This document shows, piece after piece, positions 8,458-25,879 of a stretch of DNA of 64,000 nucleotides; position 1 is the stretch's first letter; every line of letters begins with the position of its first letter. The notes under the pieces were generated by a model. It was not told where the DNA came from. It worked only from the letters and a program-made list of their open reading frames with translations, and searched no databases. Source of the DNA: Staphylococcus capitis subsp. capitis (lineage in GTDB: Bacteria > Bacillota > Bacilli > Staphylococcales > Staphylococcaceae). Location: positions 1,736,001 to 1,800,000 of the forward strand of contig NZ_CP145263.1 in assembly GCF_040739495.1 (NCBI RefSeq), written 5' to 3'. Position numbers and translations under genes: made by a program.

Positions 8458-10117
8458 TAACGATATCACTCAATTTCTTATATAAAATTTGATGTTGTTG
8501 TAAATTATCTTCTCGACTTGTTAATACTTCATATATATGAGAACCCATCGCTGATAATTCCATGTATTTAAAATCTGTTAAGTTTTCAAAGCGATCAAAA
8601 GTAAAATCATATAATAGCGCAGTATGCTCGAAGTCTAAACCTGTAGGTGTGCCGAATAATTTCTCGAAATATTCATTCGCTGAATCTTTTTGTGGTAAAT
8701 AAGAGAAGATACCACCACCATCGTTATTAACAAGCACAATATTAATATGAATATCATTTAATTTCGCCATTAATAAACCATTCATATCATGATAAAAAGA
8801 TAAATCTCCAATCAAGAGCGTCACATTCTTATGAACTGCCATACCTATCGCGGTTGAGACAACGCCATCAATACCATTTGCGCCGCGATTTGCATAAACT
8901 TCCGCTTCAGTTTCAAACATTAAATTATCAACATCTCGAATCGGCATACTATTTCCAACGAAAAACGCATCTTCTTTTGATAATTTATGAATCAGTTCAC
9001 CCACATAAGCAGCTTCATCAGTTGCATGATTCAAGTAATCTTTAATTTCAATGCGAGATTGTTGTTCTAATGATTGCCACAATTCTAACCAATCTTTACG
9101 TTGAACACTCTCTTCCTCAATTAATGATCTAAAGAAATCGTTCGCTGAAATTTCATAAGATATATGTGGTGGTGTTGGAAATACATCAATTTTATCATTA
9201 TTTTGTACTAATATTTGATAAGCTGATGTTCGTTTAAGCCATTGATTTAACTTTTTAGAAATCACAGGTTTACCAACACGAATAACAAAGTCTACATCTA
9301 AATCCAAACCTGCACGATAGAGTAAATCATATGTGGTAATCACATTAGGATGGTTATATTTACGTAATTGGCTCAATGGATCAGCCAATATAGGCAAGTC
9401 ATAAATTGTAGAGTATTTCAGAATTTGATCGACCTCTTGATGTTGCATATCTCCAACAATAATAAGTCCCTTTTTCTTCTGTAATGTCGCACTAATATCA
9501 TGTACAGCAATACTCTTTTGATAGTGTGGTAATGTTTTATTCTCGGATGTGAGTAAATCAACACGATTCATATCAGGAGTCAGAGGCTCCCTAAATGGCA
9601 TGTTGAAATGTATTGGACCACGATGCGGTCCATATAGATATTGGCTTGCAATCTGCATCTGATAATGTATCGTGTCTAGCAATTGCGTACTACCATCTGC
9701 GATAGGTAAATCAAATTGGAAATTAACATAGTTACTAAACATGTTCACTTGATTAATCGCTTGAGGTGCACCCACACTACGCAATTCATGAGGTCTATCG
9801 CTTGTTAATACGATTAAAGGCAATCTACTAATCTGGCTTTCAGCGATGGCTGGTGTATAGTTCGCAGCTGCTGTTCCTGACGTACATAATATCGCGACTG
9901 GTTTTTTACTTCCTTTAATAAGTCCTAATGCGAAAAATGCTGCGCTTCGTTCATCAGGATGTATCCAGGTTTTAATTTTCGGATGTGCCTCAAATGCAAG
10001 AGCTAACGGCGTTGAACGTGAACCCGGGCTAATCACCACTTCACGTACGCCATATGCATATAATTCCGACGCAAATGTGAAAACTTGTTGCGTCAATGCA
10101 TCGCTATGATTTGTCAT
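8444..10117 (-). CDS. menD: SEPHCHC synthase
   Basis: MenD is a ThDP-dependent enzyme that adds the succinic-semialdehyde unit from 2-oxoglutarate to isochorismate. The 557-residue protein has the N-terminal pyrimidine-binding domain ([31 protein letters not shown]), a central domain, and the C-terminal diphosphate-binding domain. In the latter the motif starts at [13 protein letters not shown] and ends at VNNDGGGIF. It overlaps menF by 14 bases and menH by 14 bases, so the four genes are translationally coupled. Confidence 0.96.
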
Positions 10118-11474
10118 AATTATCTACTCCTAATGCATTCATCATTGGTGAAAATTTAACTGCCGTTTCAGCGACTTCGCTATCAGGATCAGAATTCTTA
10201 ACAATTCCGCAACCTGCAAATAATGTAGCTTGGTCTCCTTTAATTAACATCGAACGAATCGCGACTATAAATTCGCAATCATCATAAACGTCAATGTAGC
10301 CTACCGGAGAACCATACAGTCCTCGCGTTCCAAATTCTTTATTCTCAATAAATTCTAATGCCTCGTCCTTTGGATAACCACCTAAAGCTGGTGTAGGATG
10401 TAAGCAATCAATTAATCCAATGTATGATTTATCGTTTAAATGACCCTTGATCTCTGTGTATAAATGATATAAATGATCATTTTTTAAAATATTAGGTGTT
10501 TCATTGTACTCTACATCTTGTACGAACGGCTTAATATCATTCAAGATACTTTCCACTACAAATTGATGTTCACCTAAGTTTTTCTTATCTTTTAAGAAAG
10601 CTTTAATATTCGCTTCATCTTCTACTTCGTTGTGCGAACGTTTAATCGTTCCCGCGACAGCCTTTGTCGAAAGCACGCCATCTTGAACTTTAATCAATTG
10701 TTCAGGCGTTTGTGAAAAGAATATAGATTGATTTGATTCTAATAAGAACATATAGCTATTCTTCTCATTTTTTAAAGCTTGATTTAGAACGTAAGGAATA
10801 TTAATATCTTTATCAAATTTTATTAAACGTCTACGTGCGAGTACGATTTTTTTCGTTTCATCAATTGTGTCAATCGCTTCTTCAACGAGTTCTCGCCAGT
10901 CATCTTTGTAGATGTCTTCTACACGTGTGACATCTCCCAGGCTATCTTCTGTTTCGTTAACTTCAGTATTTTCAAAATATGAAACTACTTCTTTGAAAGT
11001 TTCAATATTAAAATCTTGACGTTCAGTAGTATAAGTGATGAATGTGCGGTCCCCTTCAATAGATATCAATACTTTAGGTAATACAAAGTGATTTAATCCA
11101 TACTCTCGCCACTCATCGTCTGATTTATGACTTGAAAATTGAAATCCACCACATAATCTTAAGTGATGTTGACTTGTATTAGGATGTATCAATTCAATCT
11201 CATTTTTTAATTTTTCCCATTCCCTAAAGATAGACTGCTTATTTTCAAAGTTATTTTTAAACCTTTGAACTTCATGATATCCAAAATATGAAGAATGATT
11301 GTCATTCAAGCGCATATAAAAGCGGTCGCCAGCATCTTGTTCTGTTAAATGAAATAAAGTACTTGGATCAATTGTTCTATTTAATTCAGTTTCAACAGAT
11401 ACCCAGTCCTTGGTACTCGCATACAACTTATCGACAATGTCTTCTTCTTTTACATTCACAGCCATTCTTTTCAC
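10104..11474 (-). CDS. menF: Isochorismate synthase
   Basis: MenF converts chorismate to isochorismate, the entry step of menaquinone synthesis. The 456-residue protein has the chorismate-binding domain in its C-terminal two thirds: [47 protein letters not shown] and the closing [13 protein letters not shown]. The start is a GTG at 11474, because AAGGAG lies 6 bases before it. The next ATG, three codons in, would be 15 bases from the RBS. It is first in menF-D-H-B and divergent from menA. Confidence 0.95.
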
Positions 11475-11574
11475 TTCTTTCTCCTTCGAATTTTACTCAT
11501 TAGTATATTGTATCATTTTTGTATTAATGTGTTATCATTCTTGCTTAAACTAAACATGCAATTTTTCACGTCAA

Positions 11575-11603
11575 TTGACCTTTATCTACGATTCTTTTAA
11601 AAT
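11575..11603 (+). promoter_or_regulatory. Candidate menA promoter
   Basis: TTGACC (11575-11580), a 17-base spacer and TAAAAT (11598-11603), about 40 bases before the menA start, fit a sigma-A promoter. Confidence 0.6.
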
Positions 11604-11643
11604 ATTTATGTTAAAACTATATAAATAAGAGGTTATGCATATT

Positions 11644-12582
11644 ATGGCAGATCAATATCAACAATATTCAACTGTTAAGAAATACTGGCAATTGATGAGA
11701 CCTCATACTTTAACCGCTGCAGTTATCCCGGTCTTAGTCGGAACAGCTACAGCAAAGATTTACCTACTTGGTAGTGAAGACCATTTGAAATTCAGCTTAT
11801 TCCTAGCTATGCTTCTTGCATGTTTATTAATACAAGCTGCAACAAACATGTTTAATGAATATTATGATTTCAAAAAAGGTCTTGATGATCATAACTCTGT
11901 AGGTATTGGTGGCGCTATCGTACGCAATGGTATGAGTCCAAAACTTGTCATGAACATAGCGATTGCATTTTATATTATTGCAGCATTATTAGGTATCTTT
12001 TTAGCTATACAAAGTTCATTCTGGATTATTCCAGTCGGTATCGTTTGTATGGCAATTGGTTATCTTTATACTGGTGGACCTATTCCTATTTCATGGACAC
12101 CATTTGGCGAACTATTTTCCGGTTTATTTATGGGAATGATTATTATAGTGTTATCATTCTTTATTCAAACTGGAAATGTTCAAGGTTATGCCTTTTGGAT
12201 TAGTATTCCAATCGTTATTACAATTGGACTTATTAATATGGCAAACAATATCCGTGATCGTGTTAAAGATAAAGAAAGCGGCAGAAAAACTTTACCTATT
12301 TTATTAGGTAAACGTGCCTCTGTGATTTTCATGGCAGCCATGTATATAGTTGCTTATGTGTTCGTAATTTTCACAGCACTATTCAAAGCTCCAGGATCAC
12401 TATTTTACTTATTAGTGTTATTATCTTTCCCTATGCCAATTAAAGCTGTAAGACGTTTCAATAAGAACGATACGCCAGCTACTATGATGCCAGCTATGGC
12501 AGCTACAGGTAAGACCAACACAATATTTGGTCTTTTATATGCATTAGGAATATATATTAGTGCACTTTTAGGCGCAATTTAA
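11644..12582 (+). CDS. menA: 1,4-dihydroxy-2-naphthoate polyprenyltransferase
   Basis: MenA attaches the polyprenyl tail to DHNA at the membrane. The 312-residue protein is a UbiA-type prenyltransferase with about eight to nine membrane segments and two Asp-rich motifs. The first is NMFNEYYDFKKGLD and the second NNIRDRVKDKESGRKTLP. The AAGAGG sequence is only 2 bases from the first ATG (11635) but about 11 from the second (11644, MADQYQQYSTVKK), which I choose. It is divergent from menFDHB. Confidence 0.95.
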   Translation: MADQYQQYSTVKKYWQLMRPHTLTAAVIPVLVGTATAKIYLLGSEDHLKFSLFLAMLLACLLIQAATNMFNEYYDFKKGLDDHNSVGIGGAIVRNGMSPKLVMNIAIAFYIIAALLGIFLAIQSSFWIIPVGIVCMAIGYLYTGGPIPISWTPFGELFSGLFMGMIIIVLSFFIQTGNVQGYAFWISIPIVITIGLINMANNIRDRVKDKESGRKTLPILLGKRASVIFMAAMYIVAYVFVIFTALFKAPGSLFYLLVLLSFPMPIKAVRRFNKNDTPATMMPAMAATGKTNTIFGLLYALGIYISALLGAI

Positions 12583-12601
12583 TTTAATACTTTTGAAAAT
12601 G

Positions 12602-12640
12602 AACTCGGCAATGAAATGATATTTCAATGTCGAGTTTTTT
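12602..12640. terminator. Terminator between menA and the GNAT gene
   Basis: AACTCGGCAATGAAAT pairs with ATTTCAATGTCGAGTT (two mismatches) and is followed by TTTTTT, between convergent genes. Confidence 0.8.
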
Positions 12641-13193
12641 AATTTAATGTCATGTGATGATACTGATGTCCATACAAATCAATATCTCCATTTTCTTTAA
12701 AACCTAATTTACTATAAAGTTTAAAAGCACCCTCATTGTCATAATCACAATTCAAACTCCATTTCGCATGTTTATCAGTATCAATTAAATGTTTTAACAA
12801 TTGCGTAGCGATACCTTGACCTCTGTATTCAGGAAAAGTAGCTACCGCTTCAATATAAATTTCATCATTATAAGCTTCTTGTTGCGGTAATGGTGTGCCT
12901 AGTTCACGAATATCCTCTTCAAGCGGTAAATTCAACCATTGTCGCTCTAAATCTAGCTCTTTTTCACCTGGATAAGCAATGATACAACCAGCCACGACAC
13001 CTTCTTTTTCATATACCCAAATATGCTCATAATACGTACGGTATTTAACATTCACAATGCTTAGTTCTATCGCCTCAATGACACGTTCTTTGGTAAACGT
13101 TTGTGTAAGTTCTAGCTCCATATCTTGCCATATGATGTAACACAATTTAGCAATTTGCCTATTATCACTTGGACGCGCTCTTCTAATCATCAT
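12639..13193 (-). CDS. GNAT-family N-acetyltransferase
   Basis: The 184-residue protein has the acetyl-CoA-binding motif A of GNAT enzymes, EAVATFPEYRGQGIATQLLKHLI (R-G-Q-G-I-A near residues 125-130). It also has the motif B segment LNCDYDNEGAFKLYSKLGFKE. The acceptor is not evident. AAAGGGG precedes the ATG by 5-6 bases. It sits at the left border of the accessory region, convergent with menA. Confidence 0.88.
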   Translation of the reverse strand: MMIRRARPSDNRQIAKLCYIIWQDMELELTQTFTKERVIEAIELSIVNVKYRTYYEHIWVYEKEGVVAGCIIAYPGEKELDLERQWLNLPLEEDIRELGTPLPQQEAYNDEIYIEAVATFPEYRGQGIATQLLKHLIDTDKHAKWSLNCDYDNEGAFKLYSKLGFKENGDIDLYGHQYHHMTLN

Positions 13194-13389
13194 TCATTCC
13201 CCTTTTTAAATAGGTTGCAATGCTATTATATATAATCTCTGTGATTTAATAAAATTATTACTAACTTGGGACTAAATTGAAGAGTGAATTAAACTATGGA
13301 TTTTTTAAAAAATTCTTAAAATTACTTTTAATAAACTACAATCAGGGGTAAGTATGAATAATAAATCAATTATATAAGGGAGAATAATT

Positions 13390-13518
13390 ATGGATATTAT
13401 AAGAAGAGTGTTTAGAATTTTAATCACAGGCTATATTGTCAAAGCCATAAGAAACCTCATATCTGGGAAATCTGGAAAATCAGACAACAGCAATAACAAT
13501 GAGAACAAAGAAAAGTAA
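13390..13518 (+). CDS. Small basic amphipathic peptide, 42 residues, function unknown
   Basis: A short ORF with a strong RBS (AAGGGAG, 7-base spacing) and its own terminator. Residues 1-24 alternate hydrophobic and Arg/Lys residues (MDIIRRVFRILITGYIVKAI...) and could form an amphipathic or membrane helix. Residues 25-42 are a polar Gly/Ser/Asn/Lys tail. A 7-codon ORF (MNNKSII) ends 12 bases before its start, right at its RBS. I do not recognise the family. Possibilities include a small membrane protein, an immunity-type peptide for the nearby lantibiotic locus, or a toxin-like peptide. None is established. Confidence 0.65.
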   Translation: MDIIRRVFRILITGYIVKAIRNLISGKSGKSDNSNNNENKEK

Positions 13519-13578
13519 AACCTTATAAGTTTAATTAATGGGAATATGTTTTAGGTGTAAAAACACTATATTTATTTT

Positions 13579-13615
13579 AAGTCGAACTAATCACATGCGG
13601 TTAGTTCGACTTTTT
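13579..13615 (+). terminator. Terminator after the 42-residue peptide gene
   Basis: AAGTCGAACTAA and TTAGTTCGACTT form a perfect 12-bp stem around a 10-base loop, followed by TTT. Confidence 0.88.
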
Positions 13616-13937
13616 ATTAAATAAAAATATGTATTAATAATTAAAAGATATTCATTGAAGTAATGTAATAAAAATGTCGAAATCTTTATTTAAAATTTTA
13701 TGGAATATTCGATTGAAAACCCTTACAATATATAATGTAAAATTCAGATAAAATATTAGTGTAAGAGGACCAATTCAATCTAATCAAGTCATGCTAGTTG
13801 TTATAGCAATTTATTAATATTAAAGAGTTGCATTTATTAGTAATTATGATTAATAATCGGAATTTTCTAAATAATGATTTTATTTCCCCTTATCTACCGA
13901 GATTTCTTAAATTACTAAAATCAAATGAGGTGAAAAA

Positions 13938-14054
13938 ATGCTAAAAGAAAAAGATAGAGAGAGTAAGTACTACAATGACATATTAAATATTTCAAAGTTT
14001 ATTAAAGGAGTGAGTAGTTATAAGTGTTTAATATTCAAATTTTGCCTTCTTTAA
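13938..14054 (+). CDS. Candidate 38-residue leader ORF overlapping the EpiQ-like gene
   Basis: A short ORF (MLKEKDRESKYYND..., ending KFCLL) with a good RBS (GAGGTG, 5-base spacing). Its 3' end overlaps the start of the EpiQ-like gene by 31 bases in another frame. Because the downstream gene uses a GTG start with a distant RBS, translation of this ORF could couple to it. No homology is recognised, and it may equally be a remnant. The stretch between 13616 and 13937 is AT-rich and I see no gene in it. Confidence 0.35.
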   Translation: MLKEKDRESKYYNDILNISKFIKGVSSYKCLIFKFCLL

Positions 14055-14638
14055 ATAAAATAACAAAAGAAAAAATACTAGAAATCAATGATTGCATTGT
14101 CATTAATTCAAAAACCACCAATCCAGATTTGCTTATCATTTGGGAATCAAGTAATGAATATGATCAAATGATAGAAAATAAAGTTAGTTCATTACCTATC
14201 ATCGTAATAACTAAAAATAATAATAGAGACAGAAAGTATTATTTTTATGAAAAAGGTGTAGCTTTGTATGTCATCATCAATGACGAAGATGATTGTTCGA
14301 TAGAGTGTCTCATTATTAACGAAATAAAAAAGCATTTACATTACCTTAGACCTAAATTGCTCATCGATTTTGAGAAACAATTATTTATTTTTAATGATAA
14401 AAAATATGCACTATCTCACATTGAACTGCAAATTTTAAATTACCTATATCAACATATGAATCAATACGTCTCTAGCAAAGATTTAAAAATTCAAGTTTGG
14501 GATACCCTAGAATATGTAGACTCTAATACAATAAATGTTTACATTCACAGATTAAGATATCATCTTCAAACTTGCAATAATTTGGAAATTGTCAACAAAA
14601 GGTCTACAGGCTACAAATTAGTAATAAAAGATAGGTAA
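14024..14638 (+). CDS. EpiQ-like transcriptional activator (OmpR-type DNA-binding domain)
   Basis: The 204-residue protein has a degenerate receiver-like N-terminal half without an obvious phospho-acceptor Asp motif. Its C-terminal OmpR/PhoB winged helix (about residues 115-202) includes ALSHIELQILNYL, the recognition-helix region SNTINVYIHRLRYHL and the wing RSTGYKL. Length and architecture match EpiQ, which activates the epiA promoter without a partner kinase. It converges tail to tail with lanABC, as epiQ does with epiABCD. The start is GTG, with AAAGGAG 13 bases upstream. Its probable target is the palindromic lanA promoter. Confidence 0.8.
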   Translation: MFNIQILPSLNKITKEKILEINDCIVINSKTTNPDLLIIWESSNEYDQMIENKVSSLPIIVITKNNNRDRKYYFYEKGVALYVIINDEDDCSIECLIINEIKKHLHYLRPKLLIDFEKQLFIFNDKKYALSHIELQILNYLYQHMNQYVSSKDLKIQVWDTLEYVDSNTINVYIHRLRYHLQTCNNLEIVNKRSTGYKLVIKDR

Positions 14639-14668
14639 TTGTACTTGCCATCAGTACATAATCAAAAA

Positions 14669-14712
14669 TAATCCTCAAAGTAATTGAAGTCTTAATACTT
14701 TGAGGATTTAAT
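14669..14712. terminator. Terminator between EpiQ-like gene and lanC
   Basis: ATCCTCAAAGTA pairs with TACTTTGAGGAT around a 16-base loop, between convergent genes. The remaining bases up to 14890 hold only a 30-codon minus-frame stretch without a convincing identity. Confidence 0.7.
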
Positions 14713-14890
14713 ATTTAAAATTAAACGTCTAGAGTACTTGTTCCGATGAATGAAGTTCATAATCTTAGATATTGAGTTAAAAAGTTTTATTTTCAAAAAA
14801 ATAAAAAACATTGTTATTTAATAAACTATTATATTGCGATTGAAGCCCTAATCTTTCACGAGCCATCAATATATTAACGCGTCCTCATAA

Positions 14891-16135
14891 CTAGCTAATT
14901 AAAAACATGTTTTTCCAACCTTTTTCTAAATAGTCAGTGTGCCTACTTTGATAATCTAATAATGATAAAAGAACACCTATCTGTCCTTCTAATAAACCAA
15001 CCTTATTTTTAAATAGTTTCTGTTTATTATCTAACTCGATATCATGAAACATAAACTGATTTCCATAAGAATAAAGTGACAATATCTTTTCTTGGATTAA
15101 TTCAAGATAACTATTAACTTCTTCTATATTAAAATATCTATTTACATTATTTAAAATAGTTAAATGAGATGAAAGAACATGACAAAACGTTGGACTCACT
15201 AAATTATCATTATTTAATCTAACAATTTTAATTATTAGATTTTTAGCTTTTTCTATGAGCGTATCATTATTTAAAGCTAAACCTAATAGCCAAATTGTAT
15301 TCATTATTCCAGTATCTCCATAACACCAGCCATTTCTTACGGAGTACGTTGGATAATACTTTTCTGCTATATCATAGCGATCAAGCCATCCCAACTTATT
15401 TTGGAATTCTGTCCTAAATAAATATTCCGTAATATCAGACAGTAACCTCGTATGATTATCTATTTCTACTCCTTTTAATTTGCTAAGAGCTAAGAGCGAG
15501 AATGGACCTAATATTCCATGAGCTAAACCTAAATTAATATTTCCTAAAGAAAACCTTTCTTTATCTATATCTAAAAACTGGTTTTCTCTTGAAACAATCC
15601 AGTGGCTTTTTGAATAATGTATATCTCTAAAATGATTCATTATTTTTATTAAACTAGATATAACCTTTGGATTAGCCTCTACTCTATTTAGCAAATACCT
15701 ACCCATACCGGCTAAGCCTCTTACCACATCATATTCTTTTGGATTTGCGTCCATATCTAAACATTTCATTTTTCTATTGATAAACTCGATTAAATAATCA
15801 TCTAGTGTCTGTAAAATGCTTTGATAGTGCATAGTATTATCTGAAATCACGTCAATTGAGAATGCTACACCTGATATACCGCTAAACAATGAATAACCTT
15901 CTATTCCTCTTTCTAATTCTTTACCTAATCTCGACACATATTTATGTATTAATTCATCAAGGTTAACGTTGTATAAATTTTGAAATTCATTTAAGAACAA
16001 TATCACTCCAGGGTAACCATGAGACAATGTATAAGAACTCCAACACTCACTCTTATTCTCAAATTGAGATGTAGCACTTCCAAAGTGAGATAAGAATTTT
16101 ACTTCTCTTTTCATTATTTCTTCGATGTTATTCAT
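14891..16135 (-). CDS. lanC: Lantibiotic cyclase LanC (EpiC/NisC type)
   Basis: LanC adds Cys thiols to dehydrated Ser/Thr to form (methyl)lanthionine rings. The 414-residue protein has the (alpha/alpha)6-barrel LanC motifs: GLAHGILGPFSLL with the catalytic His, WCYGDTGIMN with zinc ligand Cys271, and FCHV with zinc ligands Cys318 and His319. The Gly that normally follows Cys-His is Val320 here. The start codon overlaps the end of the lanB frame by 8 bases. No decarboxylase gene (lanD) follows. The reading frame is intact, but its usefulness is doubtful because lanA and lanB are interrupted. Confidence 0.88.
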   Translation of the reverse strand: MNNIEEIMKREVKFLSHFGSATSQFENKSECWSSYTLSHGYPGVILFLNEFQNLYNVNLDELIHKYVSRLGKELERGIEGYSLFSGISGVAFSIDVISDNTMHYQSILQTLDDYLIEFINRKMKCLDMDANPKEYDVVRGLAGMGRYLLNRVEANPKVISSLIKIMNHFRDIHYSKSHWIVSRENQFLDIDKERFSLGNINLGLAHGILGPFSLLALSKLKGVEIDNHTRLLSDITEYLFRTEFQNKLGWLDRYDIAEKYYPTYSVRNGWCYGDTGIMNTIWLLGLALNNDTLIEKAKNLIIKIVRLNNDNLVSPTFCHVLSSHLTILNNVNRYFNIEEVNSYLELIQEKILSLYSYGNQFMFHDIELDNKQKLFKNKVGLLEGQIGVLLSLLDYQSRHTDYLEKGWKNMFLIS

Positions 16136-19109
16136 TTACTGTCTCACCACGCCAGTATTTCTTAGTCTTCTCTATTTCGTTAAAAATAGAAAGTACAAAT
16201 TTCTCTTTATCTCTATTAACTCCAAATATTCTATTACATCTCATATGAATTATACTGCCAATTATATGTGTTCTAGGTGTAGATAAATTTTTACTTAAAG
16301 CAACTTTCAATTTTTCTATTTCTTTATAGTTGTTATATAAAATTTGATGAAGTTTGGGTAGCTTTTCATGTAAATAGTGATAATTATCCTTAGGGTTCGT
16401 AAGTTTAACCATCTCATTTTTATATTCTCTTATCTCATTATTACGATATAGATTTTCAACATTGTTATATCTAATTTCATTTATTTCTTCTTGGCTTATT
16501 TATAATTCATTCACTAAGAAAATAAGACTTATAGCTACAATAAATTCTTTAGGGTAATTAAATGTTTGATCAATTATTTGAATTGCCAACCAACTATCAT
16601 ACATAAAATAATCCTCAATAACTTCAATTGTTTCAATGCCACCATACCTGTTGAATTCTGGTTGGTAATCAACAATTGCAGAATTAGATAATTCAGATTC
16701 ATTAAGCCACTTTTGTTTCCGTTGCAACATAACATAATACAAATGCATTGAGTTATTTTGTTTACTTAATAATCGGAGTTTAATGAAATGTTCATTTTCT
16801 TTATATTTAATGAAAAAGAAACTTTCTACATGATTATTATCTAAAAGTTCTCTTAAACACGGTAAGATATGTTGAATTATAAAATCATTTTGGTAGTTTT
16901 CATCAATGTATAAATGTATTGAAAACCATTTCCTCTTAGTCTCCAATCGCTTATAAATATTTTTAGGAATAGATATTCTTTTTTCATTGGGTTTAACTTT
17001 TCTATATATTGGTGTCACAATTTCTATAACTCTATCATTGTTAGACTTTGATATAAAATCCTCTAACAGACTTAGCCTACCTTGCTTTTCAATTTCCTTT
17101 TTCAATATAGAAATATGTGCATAATTAGACAAATCAATAGTTAACCTATTATCTCCATAAGCCATCGTGACATCATTGGGAATATTATAATATTGTTGAA
17201 TCTTTCGAAATTGTTCAATCCAATTTTCTTTTTCACTACTGGTGAACATATCTTTATTTAATTTCCATGTTGCTGGTTTTAAAATTACATTTTTATATCT
17301 AATTCTAGGACAATAATTAAACCCCTCAATTCCATTGTCCTTGATAGGTTGAATAAATCTTGTATTACCTATAGACACTTCTCTCAAAAACCTATATAAA
17401 TTAGAACATAAAACATAGTTCAACATAGAATGTGTTATAAATATAACCCTTGAATTTAAAGTTTTAGAAAATAAATATAATTGATCAAAAGTACTTCCAA
17501 CGAATAAATCATCTAACACAAATGAATTATACGGCATATCTAAATCTAATTCTTTGAATTGAGTAGTACCAGAATGATTGATATTTAAATTTCTAGCATA
17601 TTTAGGTATCTCATTTATATGGATAACCTCAGTATCATTTTTATTACTATATTGAAGGTATTGTTCATATATTTCGTTATCTAATTGACTACGTAAATCT
17701 CTATCAATTTCTTGTGAAAATCGTCCCATCGTTGCTCCGGCATTGAAAGAAGATACGATAGGACTAATTACTAAAAATTCATCATATCCATTTATCATAT
17801 TTCCATAATAAAATTCACTATATATTTCTGTAGTTAAAGGTGCTCTTTCCACAGGAACAGTGTTTTTCTTTTCTAAATCTAAGAGTTCTTTCTCAGTGAT
17901 TTCTATCTCTTCATTATGAGATAGTGCATAATAATATTTATCTTTCAAAAATGGAATATCATTTTTTATTGGCTTATCTTCATTTGTGGAATAACCCATA
18001 CCATTGATATCAGAAAGTAATTCCTTTAAATTTACAATTTGTTCTAAACCGTATTTTTCCAAAAAATTATAATGGAAATCATTATTAGTGCTAATTTCCA
18101 AGTCATTAGGAGAAAGTAACCAAAGTAGATATGCCGCTTCACTTATATTTTCAGCAATTTCGTTACTTAAATAATTATTTTTAGTTTGAATTTTAGTATC
18201 AATTTGAATATATTCTTTAGCTTTAAATAAACCGCTCATCAACTCTCTAATTCTTAAAAAGGTCGTCTTCCCCTCTCCAATTTCCATAATTTGGTACTTC
18301 ATAATTTCAAAATGTATCAACTGAAGTGATCTTATAAAATCATTATTAACGTCTCTATAAAGGCATAATAGATAATCTAACAGGTTTTCTTTTTTTAAGG
18401 CAGTCCTCAAGCTAGTAAAGATTATTTCTTTGTCTAATAAACTTTGTATAAAACGTTTTATTTCATTCTCATCCTCAATTAAAAACTTCTCTGAAATTAA
18501 TTTTATTAGGTCTTTAAATGTTAAATCTTCATGCAAACTTTGTTTAATGAACTTAAGTAAATCATTATTTTTGATAGAGACGCGTTCTTTATTATTTTCT
18601 TGAATTAAACATGTTTGATTATCTAAATAAATGCGCTGCTCAGTAATGTAATTTCTTTCATTCCAAATGACTAAACTATCTTGATAATAATCATAATTTC
18701 TTTCTAAAAAATGAATTAATTTACATAACCATGAACCATCGATTTTAACGCTTTTATAATAGTAATTAATATCTTCTTGTATTTGAATATTAGGTTTCTC
18801 ATCAAATTGCCCTAAAGATATACCACTTAACAATCCATATGGCGTTCCTCTCGTACTCATTCTAATAAGATACTTTAAAAAGCTCTCTTTAGCATTACGC
18901 GCTTTTTTAGTCTCACTATCATATGAAATTTTAGTTAAGCTTTTGTATAAATGATATGTAGTAGTCATAATGGTTTCTTCAATAATTTTGTTTTTGAAAA
19001 AAGAGGAGTAATCTATTTCATCATTTTTTAAATAATTTTTATAAATAGATACAGGAAGTAAAGGGGCTCTAATAATGTAATAATTCGATGTATTAAAAAT
19101 ACTTTTCAT
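16128..19109 (-). pseudogene. lanB: Lantibiotic dehydratase LanB interrupted by an in-frame TAA
   Basis: LanB uses glutamyl-tRNA to dehydrate Ser/Thr of the precursor. The first ORF (869 codons, 19109-16500) starts with NYYIIRAPLLPVSIYKNYL, as in EpiB/NisB, and contains the Lant_dehydr_N region. It runs into the elimination domain (FNRYGGIETIE) and stops at SLIFLVNEL. A TAA at 16502-16500 is followed in the same frame by 29 sense codons and then the 94-codon ORF 16412-16128. That ORF carries IIHMRCNRIFGVNR, equivalent to the conserved C-terminal His region of NisB (codon 955 here). The restored frame is 993 codons, the normal LanB size. The 869-residue product would lack this His. RBS GAGGTG lies 5 bases before the ATG. 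Confidence 0.9.
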
Positions 19110-19116
19110 CTATTCA

Positions 19117-19157
19117 CCTCTAAAAATAAAGCAGAGCCCTTTATAAGGAACTCTGCT
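19117..19157 (-). promoter_or_regulatory. Stem-loop between lanA and lanB (partial terminator)
   Basis: In the minus sense AGCAGAGTTCC pairs with AAGGGCTCTGCT, followed by TTTATTTTT and then the lanB RBS. Lantibiotic operons typically have such a weak terminator so that lanA is transcribed more than lanB. Its conservation here suggests the operon once worked. Confidence 0.75.
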
Positions 19158-19174
19158 CAAACATTGCACTTAAA

Positions 19175-19333
19175 TCAACACTTTTTACTAGAGAATTACA
19201 AGTTTTTAGCGCAACCTGGTGTACACCAAATTAAACTTGTATTTGGCGGATCTGATTCTGAATTACTGATTTCTCTCGCATTTACTTTAACGTCAAGATC
19301 AAAAAGTTCTTTCTTTTCTTTAACAGCTTTCAT
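19175..19333 (-). pseudogene. lanA: Gallidermin/epidermin-type lantibiotic precursor with in-frame TAA
   Basis: An ATG at 19333 with RBS AAGGAGTGG opens a precursor frame. The 30-residue leader begins MKAVKEKKELFDLDVKVNAR and contains the FNLD-type box (FDLDV). It aligns residue for residue with the epidermin leader as I remember it. The core begins NTSLIWCTPGCAKNL. Ser3-Cys7 and Thr8-Cys11 match rings A and B of gallidermin. Codon 46 (core position 16, a Ser in gallidermin) is TAA at 19198-19196. The frame then reads FSSKKC and stops at 19177-19175, making the core exactly 22 positions. The leader ends Pro-Pro instead of Pro-Arg, and ring C Cys21 is Lys. As it stands the product is 45 residues. 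Confidence 0.87.
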
Positions 19334-19414
19334 TGAACCACTCCTTAAAATTTTTAAAAGAATATTTAAATTCTTTTCAGTTACATATTAATACGAGTTT
19401 AAAAATATTTCTAT

Positions 19415-19447
19415 ATTTTATCATTATTATTACATATGTGTAATAAT
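19415..19447 (-). promoter_or_regulatory. Candidate lanA promoter with palindromic activator site
   Basis: ATTATTAC (19426-19433) and GTAATAAT (19440-19447) form a palindrome with a 6-base centre. Reading on the minus strand it covers the -35 position, 17 bases before a TAAAAT-type -10 (19420-19415). There is no good -35 hexamer. This is the layout of an activator-dependent promoter such as that of epiA, so it is the likely site of the EpiQ-like protein. Confidence 0.5.
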
Positions 19448-19535
19448 ATAATAATTTGATTTAGGATTAACTTTATTAAATAACAAGAATACAATGCTAT
19501 CTTACATACTCTCTAAAAAAATTACATATTAAAAA

Positions 19536-19563
19536 AGCCATGACTATAAAGTCATGGCTCCAA
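19536..19563 (-). terminator. Minus-strand terminator below a gene remnant
   Basis: AGCCATGACT and AGTCATGGCT form a perfect 10-bp stem with a 4-base loop, with the T-run on the minus strand. No complete minus-strand gene lies directly above it, only the remnant at 19615-19692. Confidence 0.8.
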
Positions 19564-19614
19564 CTAAAAATTAAGATATTCAATTCAAGTATTTATATTA
19601 AAATAAAATCTTAA

Positions 19615-19692
19615 TTAAGAAAGTTTCATACTCATTAACCCTATAATAGTCACTAACATAATAGCGGCACCTAACAAATCAAGTTTAAATGT
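19615..19692 (-). pseudogene. C-terminal remnant of a membrane (transporter-like) protein
   Basis: A 25-codon minus-strand tail contains KLDLLGAAIMLVTIIGLMSM and ends KLS, with a stop just upstream in frame. It looks like the last membrane helix of a small transporter (DMT/EamA or SMR type) and is followed by a terminator. The rest of the gene is not recognisable. The 19700-20210 stretch shows only a 41-codon plus-strand open stretch at 19769-19894 without a start codon. Confidence 0.45.
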
Positions 19693-20212
19693 TCATATTC
19701 AATGACAACTCATAATAAATTTATCTTACAAATTATCATCATCTTTATCTTTTTATAAACCACAATAAAGGTTAGGTGGCTTTATAGTACGTGAAGCTGA
19801 AAAATTTCTTGACAAGACTAACTTATTTGAATTGCTTTATATACTATATGCCTATTTACCATTAGCAACTCAATCCCTCAATACTAAAGATTAATAACCA
19901 TAACTCGTTTTAGTCCTTTAATTTTAACTGTTGTTTGAACACTTTAAATTTTTTATTTCACTATTAAACAAAAGTTTCACAATGTTTTAATTTCATATTC
20001 TAGAATTTTCTTATCGAACTTTTGTTTAATATTATATATAATATGCTCATAGGCTTTAAGTAGGTTCTTAAATAAGAATTATCATTAGTAATCGACTAAA
20101 AAAGTCTTAAAGTAAAATTATTACTACACATTTAACTGACTATATATTTTTTACAAAGCGATGAGAAATTCATAAATATCTTAGAATTAAAAATCTAAAT
20201 ATAGCTAAAAAT

Positions 20213-20270
20213 AAAGAGAACGCTAATTTACTAATAAATAACCATTAGTATGAGTGTGTTCTCTTTTTTA
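20213..20270. terminator. Terminator-like hairpin in the accessory region
   Basis: AAAGAGAACGC pairs with GTGTTCTCTTT, extended by ACTAA/TTAGT, and is followed by TTTTTT on the plus strand. No intact gene lies immediately upstream on the plus strand. Confidence 0.6.
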
Positions 20271-20368
20271 TATAAAAATTATGCATAATTTGAACTTTTA
20301 ATAGGAGTTGATGTTTAAAAACAAATAATAAATATACAATTTCTAAAACTAAAAAAGGTATGAGAACT

Positions 20369-20527
20369 ATGCATGAATACAAGGAGCTGATTGATAATAT
20401 TAAATATATAGAGATGTTTACCAAATTAGAATATTTAATCTTAGAAAATGATTTATATACTGATGAAAGCTTATCATTGACTGCTTACATTAGAGAAACA
20501 TCTGATTCTTATTATTCAAAACAATAA
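20369..20527 (+). CDS. Small acidic protein of unknown function, probably 5'-frameshifted
   Basis: The clear reading frame runs MHEYKELIDNIKYIEMFTKL... to DSYYSKQ (52 residues), mostly helical and acidic. The same frame stays open upstream to about 20315. A better start exists at ATG 20311 behind AGGAG, but that start leads to a stop after MFKNK. Removing one A from the AAAAA run at about 20317 would join it to the long frame and give a protein of about 70 residues. I therefore suspect a homopolymer frameshift or sequencing slip. No family is recognised. Confidence 0.5.
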   Translation: MHEYKELIDNIKYIEMFTKLEYLILENDLYTDESLSLTAYIRETSDSYYSKQ

Positions 20528-20742
20528 AGTATTTTTTTAATCTCTTTAAATCAAATAGAGTATGTAGTTATATCCAACAACTGCACTATCCTACTTAAAC
20601 TGAGTATGTTTTCCAAACTTCCCACTACTTTGATTTAAATCTTTATTTGTATACTATTAAATATTCTAATTTACCTTTTCTCAATATATTACAATTTAAA
20701 AAACTAACAATTTATCAAATTGATACATAGGAGGATATTTTT

Positions 20743-21414
20743 ATGCAACAAGAATCAACACCGTGGTACAAGCAAGAATGGTTTATAGTTTTAACTTTAA
20801 TATTCATTTTTCCACTAGGTTTATTTTTAATGTGGCGATATAGTAAATGGCCATCTGTTGCAAAGACAATTGTAACAGTGGCAATAGTGGTTATAGCGTT
20901 ATCTAGTACAACTTATGTTGGTAGCATCAAAACCGATAATCATGAAACACAATCTACCGAAACTACTGATAATGAAACTAAAGATAACGCTAATGAAACA
21001 AAAAATATAAATTCTGATGATAATAGTAAAGATGAAGAAACAAATGATAATTCTAAACAGGATAATAATACTACAATTAAAGAAGATGATGACAAAAATA
21101 TTGAAGGTACACGTTTAGAAAAAGCAGCACTTGAAAAAGCAAAATCATACTCTAAAGATATGCATATGTCTAAACTAGGAATATATGACATTTTAACTTC
21201 GGAATATGGGGAAAAGTTTAATAAAGAAGATGCACAATTTGCTATTGATCATCTAAAAGCTAATTATGAGAAAAATGCTTTAGAAAAAGCGAAATCGTAT
21301 GCTAAAGATATGAACATGTCTAATGATGCAATTTACGATATATTAATATCTGAATATGGCGAAAAATTCACTGAATCAGAGGCAAAATATGCTGTAGACC
21401 ATCTAGATAATTAG
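20743..21414 (+). CDS. Membrane protein with two Ltp repeats (superinfection-exclusion-like), paralogue 1
   Basis: The 223-residue protein starts with a short polar segment and two hydrophobic helices (about residues 13-30 and 38-60; FPLGLFLMWRYSKWP lies between). A low-complexity Asn/Asp/Glu/Thr linker (about 65-120) follows. The C-terminus has two copies of a motif of about 47 residues (KSYSKDMHMSKLGIYDIL..., KSYAKDMNMSNDAIYDIL...). These match the host cell surface-exposed lipoprotein repeat (Pfam Lipoprotein_Ltp), known from the Ltp protein of phage TP-J34, which blocks phage DNA injection. The topology places the repeats outside the cell. The RBS is AGGAGG. A role in phage exclusion is inferred. 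Confidence 0.75.
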   Translation: MQQESTPWYKQEWFIVLTLIFIFPLGLFLMWRYSKWPSVAKTIVTVAIVVIALSSTTYVGSIKTDNHETQSTETTDNETKDNANETKNINSDDNSKDEETNDNSKQDNNTTIKEDDDKNIEGTRLEKAALEKAKSYSKDMHMSKLGIYDILTSEYGEKFNKEDAQFAIDHLKANYEKNALEKAKSYAKDMNMSNDAIYDILISEYGEKFTESEAKYAVDHLDN

Positions 21415-21647
21415 TTCTTGAGGACGAATTACTGTCTCTATAACACTTAAAATGAGAGTAATTATAAGAATGAGCATAGGAAATTAATAGTAAACTTCGC
21501 CTATTTTAATTTTAAAATAGAATATGTCAAACGCTTTTTAAATTTAAAGTAGCAAAAAATCTATAAAATGAGTTTTATTCTTCTTAATCTAAGTAAAATA
21601 AATTAAGTGAGAATAACCAATAGTTAATGAAACATTAATAAAAAACG

Positions 21648-21677
21648 TTAACTTATCTGCTGATATTTTGGTATAAT
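21648..21677 (+). promoter_or_regulatory. Candidate promoter of the second Ltp-repeat gene
   Basis: TTAACT (21648-21653), an 18-base spacer and TATAAT (21672-21677) with an extended TGG. It lies about 340 bases before the start at 22019. Apart from this promoter I see nothing certain in the 600-base gap 21415-22018. Confidence 0.5.
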
Positions 21678-22018
21678 AAATCCATATTATTTTTTTATAA
21701 AGTTTACCACTATATTTCTAATATATATAAATTAAAGCAAGCAATACTCTTAGTTTCGTTGTTTTATAGAAATATCTAAAATAAAATTTATAAAGAAGGA
21801 ATATTTTGAATGTGATGCTGTTACCAATTAATTATTCATTGAAATATGGTTACACCTTTCATTCAAATAGATACATCTCAATAATGACAATATCATCTTT
21901 TAATAGGTAATAAACAAATTAGATTTTAACCTCAAATCTCAACATGAAGTTGATGTAATGTGATTATTGATGATTTCAGTGTGCATGACTTTAAAACTTA
22001 TTAAAAGGGAGTAAAAAG

Positions 22019-22543
22019 ATGGAAGAAAACTACAATAAGTATCAACAAGAAAGACATCAGGAACAATTTCAAGAATATCAGAAAATGAATGGACAAAAAA
22101 AGAATTCTAAGAAAGGTTGGCTATGGGGTTGCGGTGGATGTTTAGTTTTAGTTATTTTAATCATTATAGGCATTTCAGCTTGTACAGCCAGTATAACTAC
22201 CACTAACTCAAACAATAGTCCAAATGATACTAATGCTACTTCTCAGGAAAAAGCCGCTTTGAATAAAGCAAAAATATATTCAGATACAATGCACATGTCA
22301 AAACAAGGAATATATGATCAATTAACATCTGATGCAGGTGAGAAATTTAAAGAAAAAGATGCCAATTATGCAATAGAACATTTAAAAGCGAACTACAAAG
22401 AAAACGCTAAGAAGAAGGCAAAGGATTACGTTGAACAACAAAATATGTCAAAAGATGCGGTATTTAACCAACTAACTTCATCTTACGGTGAGAAATTTAC
22501 TAAAGAAGAAGCGCAATATGCTGTAGATCATCTAGAAAAATAA
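22019..22543 (+). CDS. Membrane protein with two Ltp repeats, paralogue 2
   Basis: The 174-residue protein has a Gln-rich cytoplasmic start (about 1-35). One membrane helix (about 38-57) is preceded by GWLWGCGGC and ends ISACTAS. A Ser/Asn/Thr linker follows, then two Ltp-type repeats (KIYSDTMHMSKQGIYDQL..., KDYVEQQNMSKDAVFNQL...). It is a paralogue of the preceding gene but has a different N-terminal anchor. RBS AAGGGAG. It is a candidate surface-exposed factor affecting phage entry, by family inference only. Confidence 0.75.
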   Translation: MEENYNKYQQERHQEQFQEYQKMNGQKKNSKKGWLWGCGGCLVLVILIIIGISACTASITTTNSNNSPNDTNATSQEKAALNKAKIYSDTMHMSKQGIYDQLTSDAGEKFKEKDANYAIEHLKANYKENAKKKAKDYVEQQNMSKDAVFNQLTSSYGEKFTKEEAQYAVDHLEK

Positions 22544-22553
22544 TTCCATTTTA

Positions 22554-22580
22554 GGGTAGCACGTCTACCCTTATTTTTTT
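22554..22580 (+). terminator. Terminator of the second Ltp-repeat gene
   Basis: GGGTAG-CACGT-CTACCC followed by TTATTTTTTT, 10 bases after the stop codon. The following 400 bases up to the tRNA terminator contain no gene I can support. Confidence 0.85.
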
Positions 22581-22981
22581 ATCATTTTTATAGAAAAGAA
22601 TTTATAGAGAAGAACATAACAAGTAGCATAAAAGCTTGATACAAAATAGATTATGAAAAAAGAGGTTAAAACATATACTCAATTTTTAACACAGATAATT
22701 TATTTAGCCAAAACTATACGGCAATATTTGACCAGGTTACTTTCAAAATTTTACATTTCAATTTGTATGTAAAAAACACGATTATGACAGTATTTAAATA
22801 ACATGACATATTTATCACCATTTATAGGAAGTACTAAAAAAGTGAAAAACTTACAAAGCTAGATAATATGAAAAAAATTTAAACCGTCAAAGAGACCGAC
22901 AATTTAACAAAAACTCAAGTAATATTGACCACGAATTGACCAAAATGTTTAAAACAGACTTTTACAGATTTTTACCAAAAT

Positions 22982-23010
22982 AAAAAAGAACGTTGATTTA
23001 ACAACGTTCT
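22982..23010 (-). terminator. Terminator of the tRNA-Asn/tRNA-Ser transcript
   Basis: AGAACGTTG and CAACGTTCT form a perfect 9-bp stem, with T-run TTTTTT on the minus strand, about 45 bases below the 3' end of tRNA-Ser. Confidence 0.85.
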
Positions 23011-23055
23011 AACAAAATTTAGTAAAATAAAAGTCTATTAATTTTTACTATTGTA

Positions 23056-23144
23056 CGGAAACGGAGGGATTCGAACCCTCGCGCCGCTCTCGCGACCTAC
23101 ACCCTTAGCAGGGGCGCCTCTTCAGCCAACTTGAGTACGTTTCC
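23056..23144 (-). tRNA. tRNA-Ser (anticodon GCU)
   Basis: The acceptor arms GGAAACG and CGTTTCC enclose a class II tRNA with a long variable arm and T-loop GGTTCGAATCC. The anticodon loop CTGCTAA gives GCU. The CCA end is not encoded. Its 3' end faces the accessory region. Confidence 0.95.
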
Positions 23145-23147
23145 ATA

Positions 23148-23222
23148 TGGCTCCGCAGGTAGGATTCGAACCTACGACCGATCGGTTAACAGCCGATAGC
23201 TCTACCACTGAGCTACTGCGGA
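23148..23222 (-). tRNA. tRNA-Asn (anticodon GUU)
   Basis: TCCGCAG and CTGCGGA form the acceptor stem. The anticodon loop CTGTTAA gives GUU, and the T-loop is GGTTCGAATCC. The 3' end is followed by an encoded CCA. It lies 3 bases upstream of tRNA-Ser in the same transcript. Confidence 0.96.
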
Positions 23223-23256
23223 TTAATGTAATTTATCTCTATCAAGCACAAATATT

Positions 23257-23284
23257 ATTATATCAATCCTGTTCAGTTTTTCAA
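23257..23284 (-). promoter_or_regulatory. Promoter of the tRNA-Asn/tRNA-Ser unit
   Basis: In the minus sense TTGAAA (23284-23279), a 16-base spacer and a perfect TATAAT (23262-23257), 35 bases above the tRNA-Asn 5' end. Confidence 0.75.
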
Positions 23285-23292
23285 GAGAAATC

Positions 23293-23348
23293 TTAAAAAA
23301 ATATACGGAACATTTACACTAATTTAATATTAACGTTCCGCATATTTT
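23293..23348 (-). terminator. Terminator of comK
   Basis: Minus-strand arms AATATGCGGAACGTT and TGTTCCGTATATT form an imperfect hairpin followed by TTTTTTT. Confidence 0.7.
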
Positions 23349-23405
23349 AAAATTAAACAAACAATTTTATGCTAAATATGAGTAGCTAAAGTATTAAAAA
23401 AGTGT

Positions 23406-23981
23406 CTACTTATCATCTAAAAGTGAATACCTTGAAAGAGCTTCAAATATATTTAACGATGATTGGTTATAATCAATGAGTTGTTCTGGGTTATTTGATT
23501 TCATACGTGCATGTTTATCTACCATATAATAATAAATAATCGCGTTCGTATATTGATGCCATAAGCTATGATAAGAAACGTTTAATATAAATGATTCACT
23601 ATTAGCAAATATCACTTTACTTTTACGATTTTTTAGTTCTTTGATGCTATCAATATAATGCATGTTTATCCAGATGTTTTCATCTTGACGATCAGAATGT
23701 GTTGGGAAAAAATAAGTTGGAAATAATGGAGTAAGTAAAATAGGTGGTTTACTAGAGATACCTGTAATTCTATTAGTTTCAGATTTTTTACTTAGATAGC
23801 TATTACCATAAAATTTGCAGGACCTTTCAATAATTCTTTGTACTTTAAATGGACTTTCCTTTCGTGATTTATCAAATCTTATAATTTCTGCCCCTGAAGT
23901 TTGTTGATATTCATCATACCTTGGTCGAATTAACATATCACCTTTTCTAATAACATAGATTGATTCACTAAAATTAGTCAT
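23406..23981 (-). CDS. comK: Competence transcription factor ComK
   Basis: ComK activates DNA-uptake and recombination genes. The 191-residue protein is full length. It has the family features YVIRKGDMLIRP (residues 9-20), VQRIIERSCKFYGNSYLSK (about 47-65), TGISSKPPILLTP and the central Trp/His-rich block. No truncation or frameshift is seen. GAGGTAATC precedes the ATG. It is divergent from the IDEAL-domain gene, and coiA and mecA lie elsewhere in the window. In Bacillus MecA targets ComK for ClpCP; whether this holds here is inference. Confidence 0.93.
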   Translation of the reverse strand: MTNFSESIYVIRKGDMLIRPRYDEYQQTSGAEIIRFDKSRKESPFKVQRIIERSCKFYGNSYLSKKSETNRITGISSKPPILLTPLFPTYFFPTHSDRQDENIWINMHYIDSIKELKNRKSKVIFANSESFILNVSYHSLWHQYTNAIIYYYMVDKHARMKSNNPEQLIDYNQSSLNIFEALSRYSLLDDK

Positions 23982-24199
23982 TCGATTACCTCACTTCACA
24001 AAAAATTAATTATTGTTACTATTTTCTTTTAATAATAATAACTTAATATTATTTTATACGAGCTTCAAATTAAGTCAAGTTATACTTTTATTTTCTTTTT
24101 ACACATATTTCTTTTAAAATGTCAGAATATTCATTGATTTCAAAAATTAAAAACTGTATACTACTCATATATCAATAAAAAAGAAAGGTAGTGATTTTC

Positions 24200-24418
24200 A
24201 TGAATCATAATACAAATGTAAAATACACTACACTTGAAGACTTTGTAACAACGGTAAATGATTTAGGTGTAGAACTTGTAATTGATGAAGCATTACGAGA
24301 AGCTAGGAAGAAAAAACTCGAGACTCTTATCGATGAAGCACTAGTAAATAAGAATGAGAAAGATTTCAGACAGTATACGGATGAATATAAAAAATTGGAG
24401 GCTTTTCTCAGTGAATAA
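24200..24418 (+). CDS. IDEAL-domain protein
   Basis: A 72-residue protein whose C-terminal half (LETLIDEALVNKNEKDFRQYTDEYKKL) matches the IDEAL domain named after the I-D-E-A-L core. The domain occurs in small Firmicutes regulatory or adaptor proteins. The frame can begin at a GTG (24191), but AAAGG is better spaced for the ATG at 24200 (MNHNTNVKY). It is divergent from comK, and a functional link with ComK is only suggested by position. Confidence 0.8.
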   Translation: MNHNTNVKYTTLEDFVTTVNDLGVELVIDEALREARKKKLETLIDEALVNKNEKDFRQYTDEYKKLEAFLSE

Positions 24419-24441
24419 ATTAGATTCGAGTCACTCATTAT

Positions 24442-24492
24442 AAAAGGTCTATTCCCTACTTAATTTAAGTGTTGAGAATAGACCTTTTTTAT
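24442..24492. terminator. Bidirectional terminator, IDEAL gene / lplA
   Basis: AAAGGTCTATTC and GAATAGACCTTT form a 12-bp stem with a long loop and A/T flanks between convergent genes. Confidence 0.85.
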
Positions 24493-24497
24493 AATAT

Positions 24498-25484: not shown

Positions 25485-25688
25485 AACATTCCTCTCCTTA
25501 AAGTGTCTTTCTATATGCCCTTACCCTAGTTATGAATGATTTATATTAAAAATTCCAATTATTTACTCATTTATGTCTTACTTTTCATATTTATATATAA
25601 CAATCTTAGTTTTTTAAGGATATTAGTTTATTTGTTATGTAAATTTTAGTACAATATTATCTAGCTATGATTTAAGGGAGGAGTCATT

Positions 25689-25874: not shown

Positions 25875-25879
25875 TTATA

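What the first reader, a model, noticed from the sequence alone, without database searches (positions are those of the whole stretch)
14024..19447. Decaying epidermin/gallidermin-type lantibiotic locus with two independent in-frame TAA codons
Seen: a palindromic promoter, lanA, an inter-gene stem-loop, lanB, lanC and a convergent EpiQ-like regulator stand in the same order as in the epidermin locus. Both lanA and lanB carry one in-frame TAA, after which the frame continues to the family length. lanC has Gly to Val after the Cys-His zinc pair. No lanD, lanP, lanT or lanFEG is present between the flanking core genes. Inference: the cluster was acquired or retained, lost its export, protease and immunity genes, and is being inactivated gene by gene.
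Basis: partly seen in the sequence, partly recalled or inferred. Interest (0 to 1): 0.85.

Follow-up and report, generated by a model that had tools for sequence, protein, structure and literature searches.

The report
Reduced epidermin locus, two-ring peptide
A skin bacterium carries a stripped-down relative of a known bacterial antibiotic locus; the peptide gene that looked broken is simply short, as it is in a related species, while the enzyme gene that should modify the peptide really is cut short here.

Summary
The locus is real: lanA, lanB, lanC and a convergent EpiQ-like regulator in a Staphylococcus capitis chromosome. The "two independent TAA" reading is half right. The lanA TAA is not decay: a second species (G055) has the same locus at the same site with the same ...CTPGCAKNL-stop, though LanB and LanC are only 69% identical. 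All 8 LanA clusters found, and two further loci, end one or two residues after GCAK. LanA is the least changed of the four locus proteins (93% identity to G055; dN/dS 0.09). The lanB TAA is a true truncation: intact alleles exist, and the lost 123 codons hold the equivalent of NisB His961, needed for dehydration. LanC carries Val where 8 other sequences compared have Gly. LanP and LanE relatives were not found in this genome or in G055; LanD and LanT matches are generic only.

Best explanation: an old, reduced epidermin-type locus encoding a short precursor with only the two N-terminal, lipid II-binding rings, long maintained, whose modification enzymes were inactivated more recently in this S. 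capitis haplotype. The locus was reported before (Kumar 2017); in the papers searched I saw nothing on its two-ring design.

The parts
14024..14638 (+). EpiQ-like regulator, 204 aa, winged-helix C-terminal domain, convergent to lanC
   Evidence: PF00486 E 9.7e-16; 45-48% identity over 99% to 4 plasmid proteins; 72% to G055
14891..16135 (-). lanC, lanthionine cyclase, 414 aa, Val at residue 320 (codon 15178-15176) after the Cys-His zinc ligands
   Evidence: PF05147 E 2.3e-70; Gly in 7 of 7 outgroup rows and in P0052; NisC alignment
16500..19109 (-). lanB, dehydratase, 869 aa up to an in-frame TAA at 16502-16500
   Evidence: PF04738 and PF14028; intact 993-1004 aa relatives
16128..16499 (-). remainder of the lanB frame after the TAA, 123 codons, with the NisB His961 equivalent
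   Evidence: PF14028 C-terminal match of the 94-aa ORF; alignment to NisB through an intact relative; conservation
19129..19158 (-). lanA-lanB intergenic stem-loop, terminator-like
   Evidence: predicted also in G055 and two plasmid loci
19196..19333 (-). lanA, complete short precursor of 45 aa with FDLD leader, core NTSLIWCTPGCAKNL
   Evidence: PF02052, NF038155, TIGR03731; same end in G055 and related short ends in 8 of 8 clusters
19426..19447 (.). 22-bp inverted repeat (9-bp arms, 4-bp spacer) at the lanA promoter, likely EpiQ site
   Evidence: read; inverted repeat at the same place with other arms in G055 (7-bp perfect arms), pEpi56, pCAPBN22 and S. gallinarum

Best explanation
This is a chromosomal, reduced epidermin/gallidermin-type class I lanthipeptide locus (lanA-lanB-lanC plus convergent epiQ). 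Its authentic precursor is 43-46 aa and ends just after ring B, so the predicted product has only rings A (Ser-Cys) and B (Thr-Cys), the part of nisin and epidermin that wraps the lipid II pyrophosphate. It lacks the C-terminal rings and terminal Cys, the leader-cleavage Arg, and linked genes for decarboxylase, protease, exporter and immunity. The reduced set stayed under purifying selection for much of the divergence between the S. capitis lineage and a second Staphylococcus species. In the haplotype of this window LanB later lost its last 123 residues, including the His961 equivalent of the glutamate-elimination site, and LanC acquired Gly320Val. This strain therefore probably makes unmodified LanA, if any. 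Expected mechanism in lineages with intact genes: EpiQ acts at the palindrome over the lanA promoter; the lanA-lanB hairpin limits read-through; LanB and LanC install two rings; the peptide is at most a lipid II binder without pore formation. Shown: gene content, conserved end, conservation, truncation, absence of partners at the stated sensitivity. Inferred: ring formation, regulation, loss of enzyme function, product activity.
For: Same stop and same site in G055 with open lanB and lanC. All 8 LanA clusters returned end at GCAKNL or GCAKR; L064 and L065 likewise, beside 993-aa LanB. lanA against G055: 3 nonsynonymous changes in about 108 sites, core identical with 2 silent changes; probability of 3 or fewer at the lanB rate 9e-6 by a simple binomial with n=105. 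lanB and lanC dN/dS 0.18 against G055 at dS 1.06-1.08. NisB His961 aligns in the part lost here; NisB H961A gives no dehydration (PMC4341554, passages). LanC Gly320 is invariant in 7 outgroup rows and is Val in the window, P0051, P0054 and P0055. No S8 protease in the genome, no LanP, no LanE, the LanE query finding relatives in 3 of 4 other lantibiotic-bearing genomes; LanD only a 29% match inside a ~400-aa frame; LanT only 29% ABC exporter matches, equally strong in G055.
Against: No transcript, peptide or activity data. lanA is short, so selection estimates rest on few changes. Between the window and the L064 haplotype lanA differs by 9.8 nonsynonymous and 5.2 synonymous changes (dN/dS 0.43), including the ring-B Pro to Asp, which fits relaxed or diversifying selection as well. 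Ten of 11 type-2 LanB fragments examined lack their N-terminus at several different points, two of them on contigs over 100 kb, so lanB loss may be recurrent in S. capitis, which weakens a claim of present-day function there. LanB before the TAA shows no acceleration on the window branch (42:48 and 41:30 by outgroup), and the part after the TAA has fewer unique changes than the intact relative (2:9 and 3:9): the stop is recent, or the tail is still used. The shared absence of partner genes in G055 could be independent loss. LanF had no control genome over its cut-off.
Confidence: 0.75

Rival explanations
1. Whole-locus pseudogenisation: lanA was truncated first, in the common ancestor, and everything since is slow decay.
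For: Accessory genes missing; lanB stop; LanC Val320. Rings A-C are needed for some antimicrobial activity of nisin (PMC4341554, passage), so a two-ring peptide may be useless. N-terminally incomplete LanB proteins in the other haplotype.
Against: Long open lanB and lanC frames in G055 at dS about 1 with dN/dS 0.18; LanA core identical between the species with silent changes only; inverted repeat and hairpin kept.
Confidence: 0.17
2. LanB works as two pieces in this strain: the 869-aa part and a separately started C-terminal piece assemble in trans.
For: The part after the TAA is well conserved and contains a 94-aa ORF matching the C-terminal domain.
Against: The ORF starts 29 codons after the TAA and I see no good ribosome site before its ATG (by eye); no known split LanB of this type was found by me; a recent stop explains the conservation more simply.
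Confidence: 0.04
3. Sequencing or assembly artefact at the TAA positions.
For: None beyond the general possibility.
Against: A distinct LanB sequence with the same end (P0001); LanA end shared by G055 and identical on 442 contigs.
Confidence: 0.01

Closest known systems
Epidermin locus of S. epidermidis KSE56 plasmid pEpi56 (and the similar locus on S. capitis BN2 plasmid pCAPBN22)
   Same: Gene order A-B-C with convergent Q; LanB 48-49% and EpiQ 45-48% identical; FxLD leader; CTPGCAK; inverted repeat before lanA and hairpin after it
   Different: Plasmid loci encode a 52-aa precursor and carry D, P, T and immunity genes; here the precursor is 45 aa and those genes are missing
Gallidermin-like cluster of S. 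capitis TE8 and AYP1020 (Kumar 2017, PMC5585272, passages seen)
   Same: LanC-LanB-short peptide on an S. capitis genome; almost certainly the same locus
   Different: The paper calls it a gallidermin-type cluster; the passages I saw do not discuss the two-ring core, the missing genes or truncated LanB
Cesin of Clostridium estertheticum (PMC10581189, abstract and outline seen)
   Same: Natural shortened member of the nisin-type lipid II binders
   Different: Cesin keeps three rings and is an active antibiotic; here only two rings are predicted and nothing is known of activity
Nisin(1-12), a fragment (PMC6899958, passages seen)
   Same: Rings A and B only
   Different: A laboratory fragment; the present core is genome-encoded, with Trp6 and a short tail

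Membership tests
Epidermin/gallidermin-type class I lantibiotic locus | Gallidermin-family precursor with FxLD leader | tested here: met
   PF02052 57.6 bits (cut-off 21), NF038155 33.4 (cut-off 20), TIGR03731 30.9 (cut-off 29.3)
Epidermin/gallidermin-type class I lantibiotic locus | 22-residue core with four rings and C-terminal Cys for AviCys | tested here: not met
   Core ends after GCAKNL; same or similar end in 8 of 8 clusters
Epidermin/gallidermin-type class I lantibiotic locus | Complete LanB dehydratase | tested here: not met
   869 of about 993 residues; His961 equivalent lost. Met in G055, L064, L065
Epidermin/gallidermin-type class I lantibiotic locus | LanC with zinc ligands Cys-Cys-His | tested here: inconclusive
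   The WCYG Cys and the Cys-His pair align to NisC, but the following Gly is Val
Epidermin/gallidermin-type class I lantibiotic locus | LanD, LanP, LanT, LanFEG | tested here: not met
   None in the interval; genome-wide no LanP or LanE, LanD/LanT generic only, LanF none over cut-off; LanG not searched genome-wide
Epidermin/gallidermin-type class I lantibiotic locus | EpiQ-type regulator and inverted repeat before lanA | tested here: met
   binding itself not testable here
Active two-ring lipid II-binding lanthipeptide | Modified product that binds lipid II | not testable with these tools
   needs mass spectrometry and a binding assay

The most novel reading that the evidence does not exclude
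Skin staphylococci keep a natural two-ring 'lipid II cage' lanthipeptide that does not kill but occupies lipid II (or signals), shielding the producer or its neighbours from nisin/epidermin-type lantibiotics, as the fragment nisin(1-12) antagonises nisin. That would explain why protease, exporter and immunity genes could be lost while lanA, lanB, lanC and the regulator stayed under selection.
Probability: 0.1. Interest if true: 0.75.

Novelty: new variant of a known kind. Interest (0 to 1): 0.42.

Why it matters
If a product is made, it would be shorter than cesin (three rings), the shortest natural nisin/epidermin-type member that I came across, and would let one ask what rings A and B do alone in nature. 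If not, the locus is an ordered series of losses (accessory genes and peptide tail first, dehydratase and cyclase later) in a human skin commensal.

Tried and rejected
Tried without result: two genome-contig scans (one search found no relative; one search found S. gallinarum, S. schweitzeri and two distant MAGs, none of them this locus); Rfam on 12500-26500 gave only two tRNAs; the promoter scan is not above shuffles (37 found, mean 45.9), so the promoter claim rests on the inverted repeat kept across loci; a plasmid search with contig C2 found nothing; a phage-record search with LanC gave two records under 60% identity.

Rejected: sequencing error for the lanB TAA; lanA interruption; LanP or LanE elsewhere in the genome (the LanE control missed G030, one of four genomes where I expected a match); accelerated LanB evolution on the window branch (none). 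For LanC the relative-rate result depends on the outgroup (30:14, p 0.02, with P0053; 20:20 with P0056), so I claim nothing from it. The 136 and 68 member sequences of the window-type LanB and LanC clusters could not be inspected one by one, so I do not claim that the TAA or the Val is fixed in them. Only 9 of the 31 LanC proteins were printed for the CHG/CHV motif; two more (P0068, P0069) stood in its invariant-column count. One search ended with a script error after printing its main results; one search did the unfinished part.

Full report
What is there. The window lies in a Staphylococcus genome of 2.48 Mb in 4 contigs. Its 9,275-base contig C4 is 100% identical over its whole length to an S. 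capitis plasmid, NZ_CP103052.1, so the species is taken as S. capitis. Four genes form the locus: lanA (19333-19196, minus), lanB (19109-16500, minus), lanC (16135-14891, minus) and a convergent regulator (14024-14638, plus). On pEpi56 (S. epidermidis KSE56) and pCAPBN22 (S. capitis BN2) the order is A-B-C-D, then convergent Q and P, with exporter and immunity genes on the other side of A. The window has A-B-C and Q in the same arrangement. tblastn of the plasmid D, P, T, H, F, E and G proteins finds no remnant in the interval (its LanF and LanT matches lie in the oppABC-type ATPases at 59-61 kb).

lanA is not interrupted. PF02052 searched over 84 Staphylococcus genomes matched in 6. One, G055, carries the same four genes between the same neighbours, menA and GNAT on one side and lplA on the other, with lanA ending ...NTSLIWCTPGCAKNL-stop as here. 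G055's LanC resembles a protein named S. saccharolyticus (P0056), so G055 is probably that species (inference). After the stop the two species differ; in G055 that frame closes 5 codons later. A protein search with the 45-aa peptide returned 8 clusters; all 8 end in GCAKNL or GCAKR, the identical one on 442 contigs. Two IMG/VR contigs, L064 and L065, hold a second haplotype whose 44-aa LanA ends ...CTDGCAKR-stop; the stretch from there to lanB is nearly identical to the window's. Against G055, lanA has 3 nonsynonymous and 7 synonymous changes (dN/dS 0.087); lanB before the TAA has dN/dS 0.178 and lanC 0.181; five neighbouring men genes range from 0.025 to 0.186 and GNAT is 0.137; epiQ was saturated at synonymous sites. 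Protein identity is 93% for LanA, 72% for EpiQ, 69% for LanB and LanC. This is conservation of a short peptide rather than drift of a dead one. Against this reading, lanA of the window and of L064 differ by 9.8 nonsynonymous and 5.2 synonymous changes (dN/dS 0.43).

lanB is truncated. Relatives of full length have 993-1004 aa: P0002 and P0003 (named S. capitis), P0004, P0005 and P0006, and L064/L065. At the TAA position these have sense codons. NisB His961 aligns to the His of the IHMRCNR motif, in the 123 codons after the TAA (residue number counted by me from the printed chain coordinates). H961A in NisB abolishes dehydration and secretion (PMC4341554, passages). A second, distinct 869-aa sequence (P0001) shares the end. 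The part after the TAA is still well conserved, which fits a recent stop. Of 11 incomplete type-2 LanB proteins compared, 10 run to the C-terminus but begin only at residue 275, 291, 306, 388, 446 or 447; two of these lie on contigs over 100 kb, several on contigs of a few kb, and the eleventh is a partial piece on a 1.5-kb contig. Gene-calling or assembly error is not excluded, but recurrent loss is plausible.

LanC. Residue 320 follows the Cys-His zinc ligands (NisC Cys330-His331, PMC9889658, passages; alignment). It is Gly in 7 of 7 outgroup rows and in the type-2 S. capitis protein P0052, and Val in the window and in P0051, P0054 and P0055. P0054 also lacks an internal stretch. Loss of function is likely but untested.

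Partners elsewhere. Peptidase S8 (LanP family): none in the genome, with the control matching in 7 of 14 named genomes. LanP and LanE proteins: none in G000 or G055; the LanE query matched 3 of 4 other lantibiotic-bearing genomes and missed G030. LanF family, own genome only: 65 ABC ATPase matches, none over the cut-off of 309.75 bits (best 182.1); no control genome passed the cut-off either. LanD: only a 29% match inside a frame of about 400 aa in both genomes, presumably a coenzyme A enzyme (recalled). LanT: best match 29%, with an equal match in G055, so generic exporters. LanG and LanH were not searched genome-wide. The absences shared with G055 are probably older than the lanB stop. Loss of the decarboxylase fits a peptide without the C-terminal Cys on which it acts (established knowledge of EpiD).

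Regulation. An inverted repeat with perfect 9-bp arms and a 4-bp spacer (19426-19447) overlaps the predicted -35 region. Plasmid and S. gallinarum loci have an inverted repeat at the same place with other arms, and G055 has one with 7-bp perfect arms: the symmetry is kept while the sequence changes. The lanA-lanB hairpin is predicted at -15.7 kcal/mol in window and G055, and a hairpin is predicted in both plasmids. That EpiQ is the regulatory gene of the plasmid loci is stated in PMC5945643 (passages); binding here is inferred.

What it might do. Rings A and B of nisin form the cage around the lipid II pyrophosphate, and nisin(1-12) antagonises nisin (PMC6899958, passages). At least rings A-C are needed for some antimicrobial activity of truncated nisins (PMC4341554, passage). 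Cesin, with three rings, binds lipid II and kills without pores (PMC10581189, abstract). A two-ring peptide is thus unlikely to be a strong antibiotic. Export can be impaired and still occur in an epidermin producer with a broken epiT (PMC5945643 and PMC8765612, passages), so missing linked lanT alone does not prove silence. Gallidermin and epidermin production is a burden even with immunity genes (PMC5945643, passages), which would favour loss.

What is in print. Kumar et al. 2017 (PMC5585272, passages) reported a LanC-LanB-gallidermin cluster in S. capitis TE8 and AYP1020 with a 44-residue peptide. PMC6225691 (passages) found chromosomal lantibiotic genes in all three S. capitis strains it compared. 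PMC3091789 (passage) lists S. capitis SK14 among LanC hits. In the listings and the passages I read, no paper noted the two-ring design, its conservation in a second species, or the mixture of intact and truncated lanB; the library holds open-licence papers only and I read no paper whole.

The site. Of three relatives fetched, none has the lan genes near GNAT in the stretch read; G012 has long phage-like frames there (my reading). G055 has integrase-like frames beside lanA (my reading), and L064/L065 come from contigs that IMG/VR lists as viral. The site is variable; the reduced locus was found in 2 of 84 Staphylococcus genomes at this place, plus protein records of Staphylococcus sp. HMSC036D05 (P0005, P0053) whose surroundings I could not see.

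Noticed in passing
L064 and L065, 5770-5904 against window 19196-19333: Two haplotypes of lanA differ more at amino-acid than silent sites (9.8 against 5.2 changes), with ring-B Pro changed to Asp and a different last residue, while the stretch after the stop is nearly identical.
   Followed up: partly
P0054 (S. capitis-type LanC, 332 aa): In-frame internal deletion between two similar GLA-containing stretches in a window-type LanC, a further sign of cyclase loss.
   Followed up: no
window 19350-19380: Inverted repeat in the lanA 5' leader (AAAAGAAT...ATTCTTTT), with partly changed arms at the same place in the plasmid epidermin loci.
   Followed up: no
window 20743-21414 and 22019-22543: Two Ltp-family lipoprotein-like genes beside the locus (PF07553 tested for the first only), absent from the G055 stretch in the tblastn.
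   Followed up: partly
window 23056-23222: Two adjacent tRNA genes near a variable chromosomal site.
   Followed up: no
G012:C25, L061 about 8200-19900: Phage-like frames next to GNAT in a close relative, at the place where the lan locus stands in the window.
   Followed up: partly
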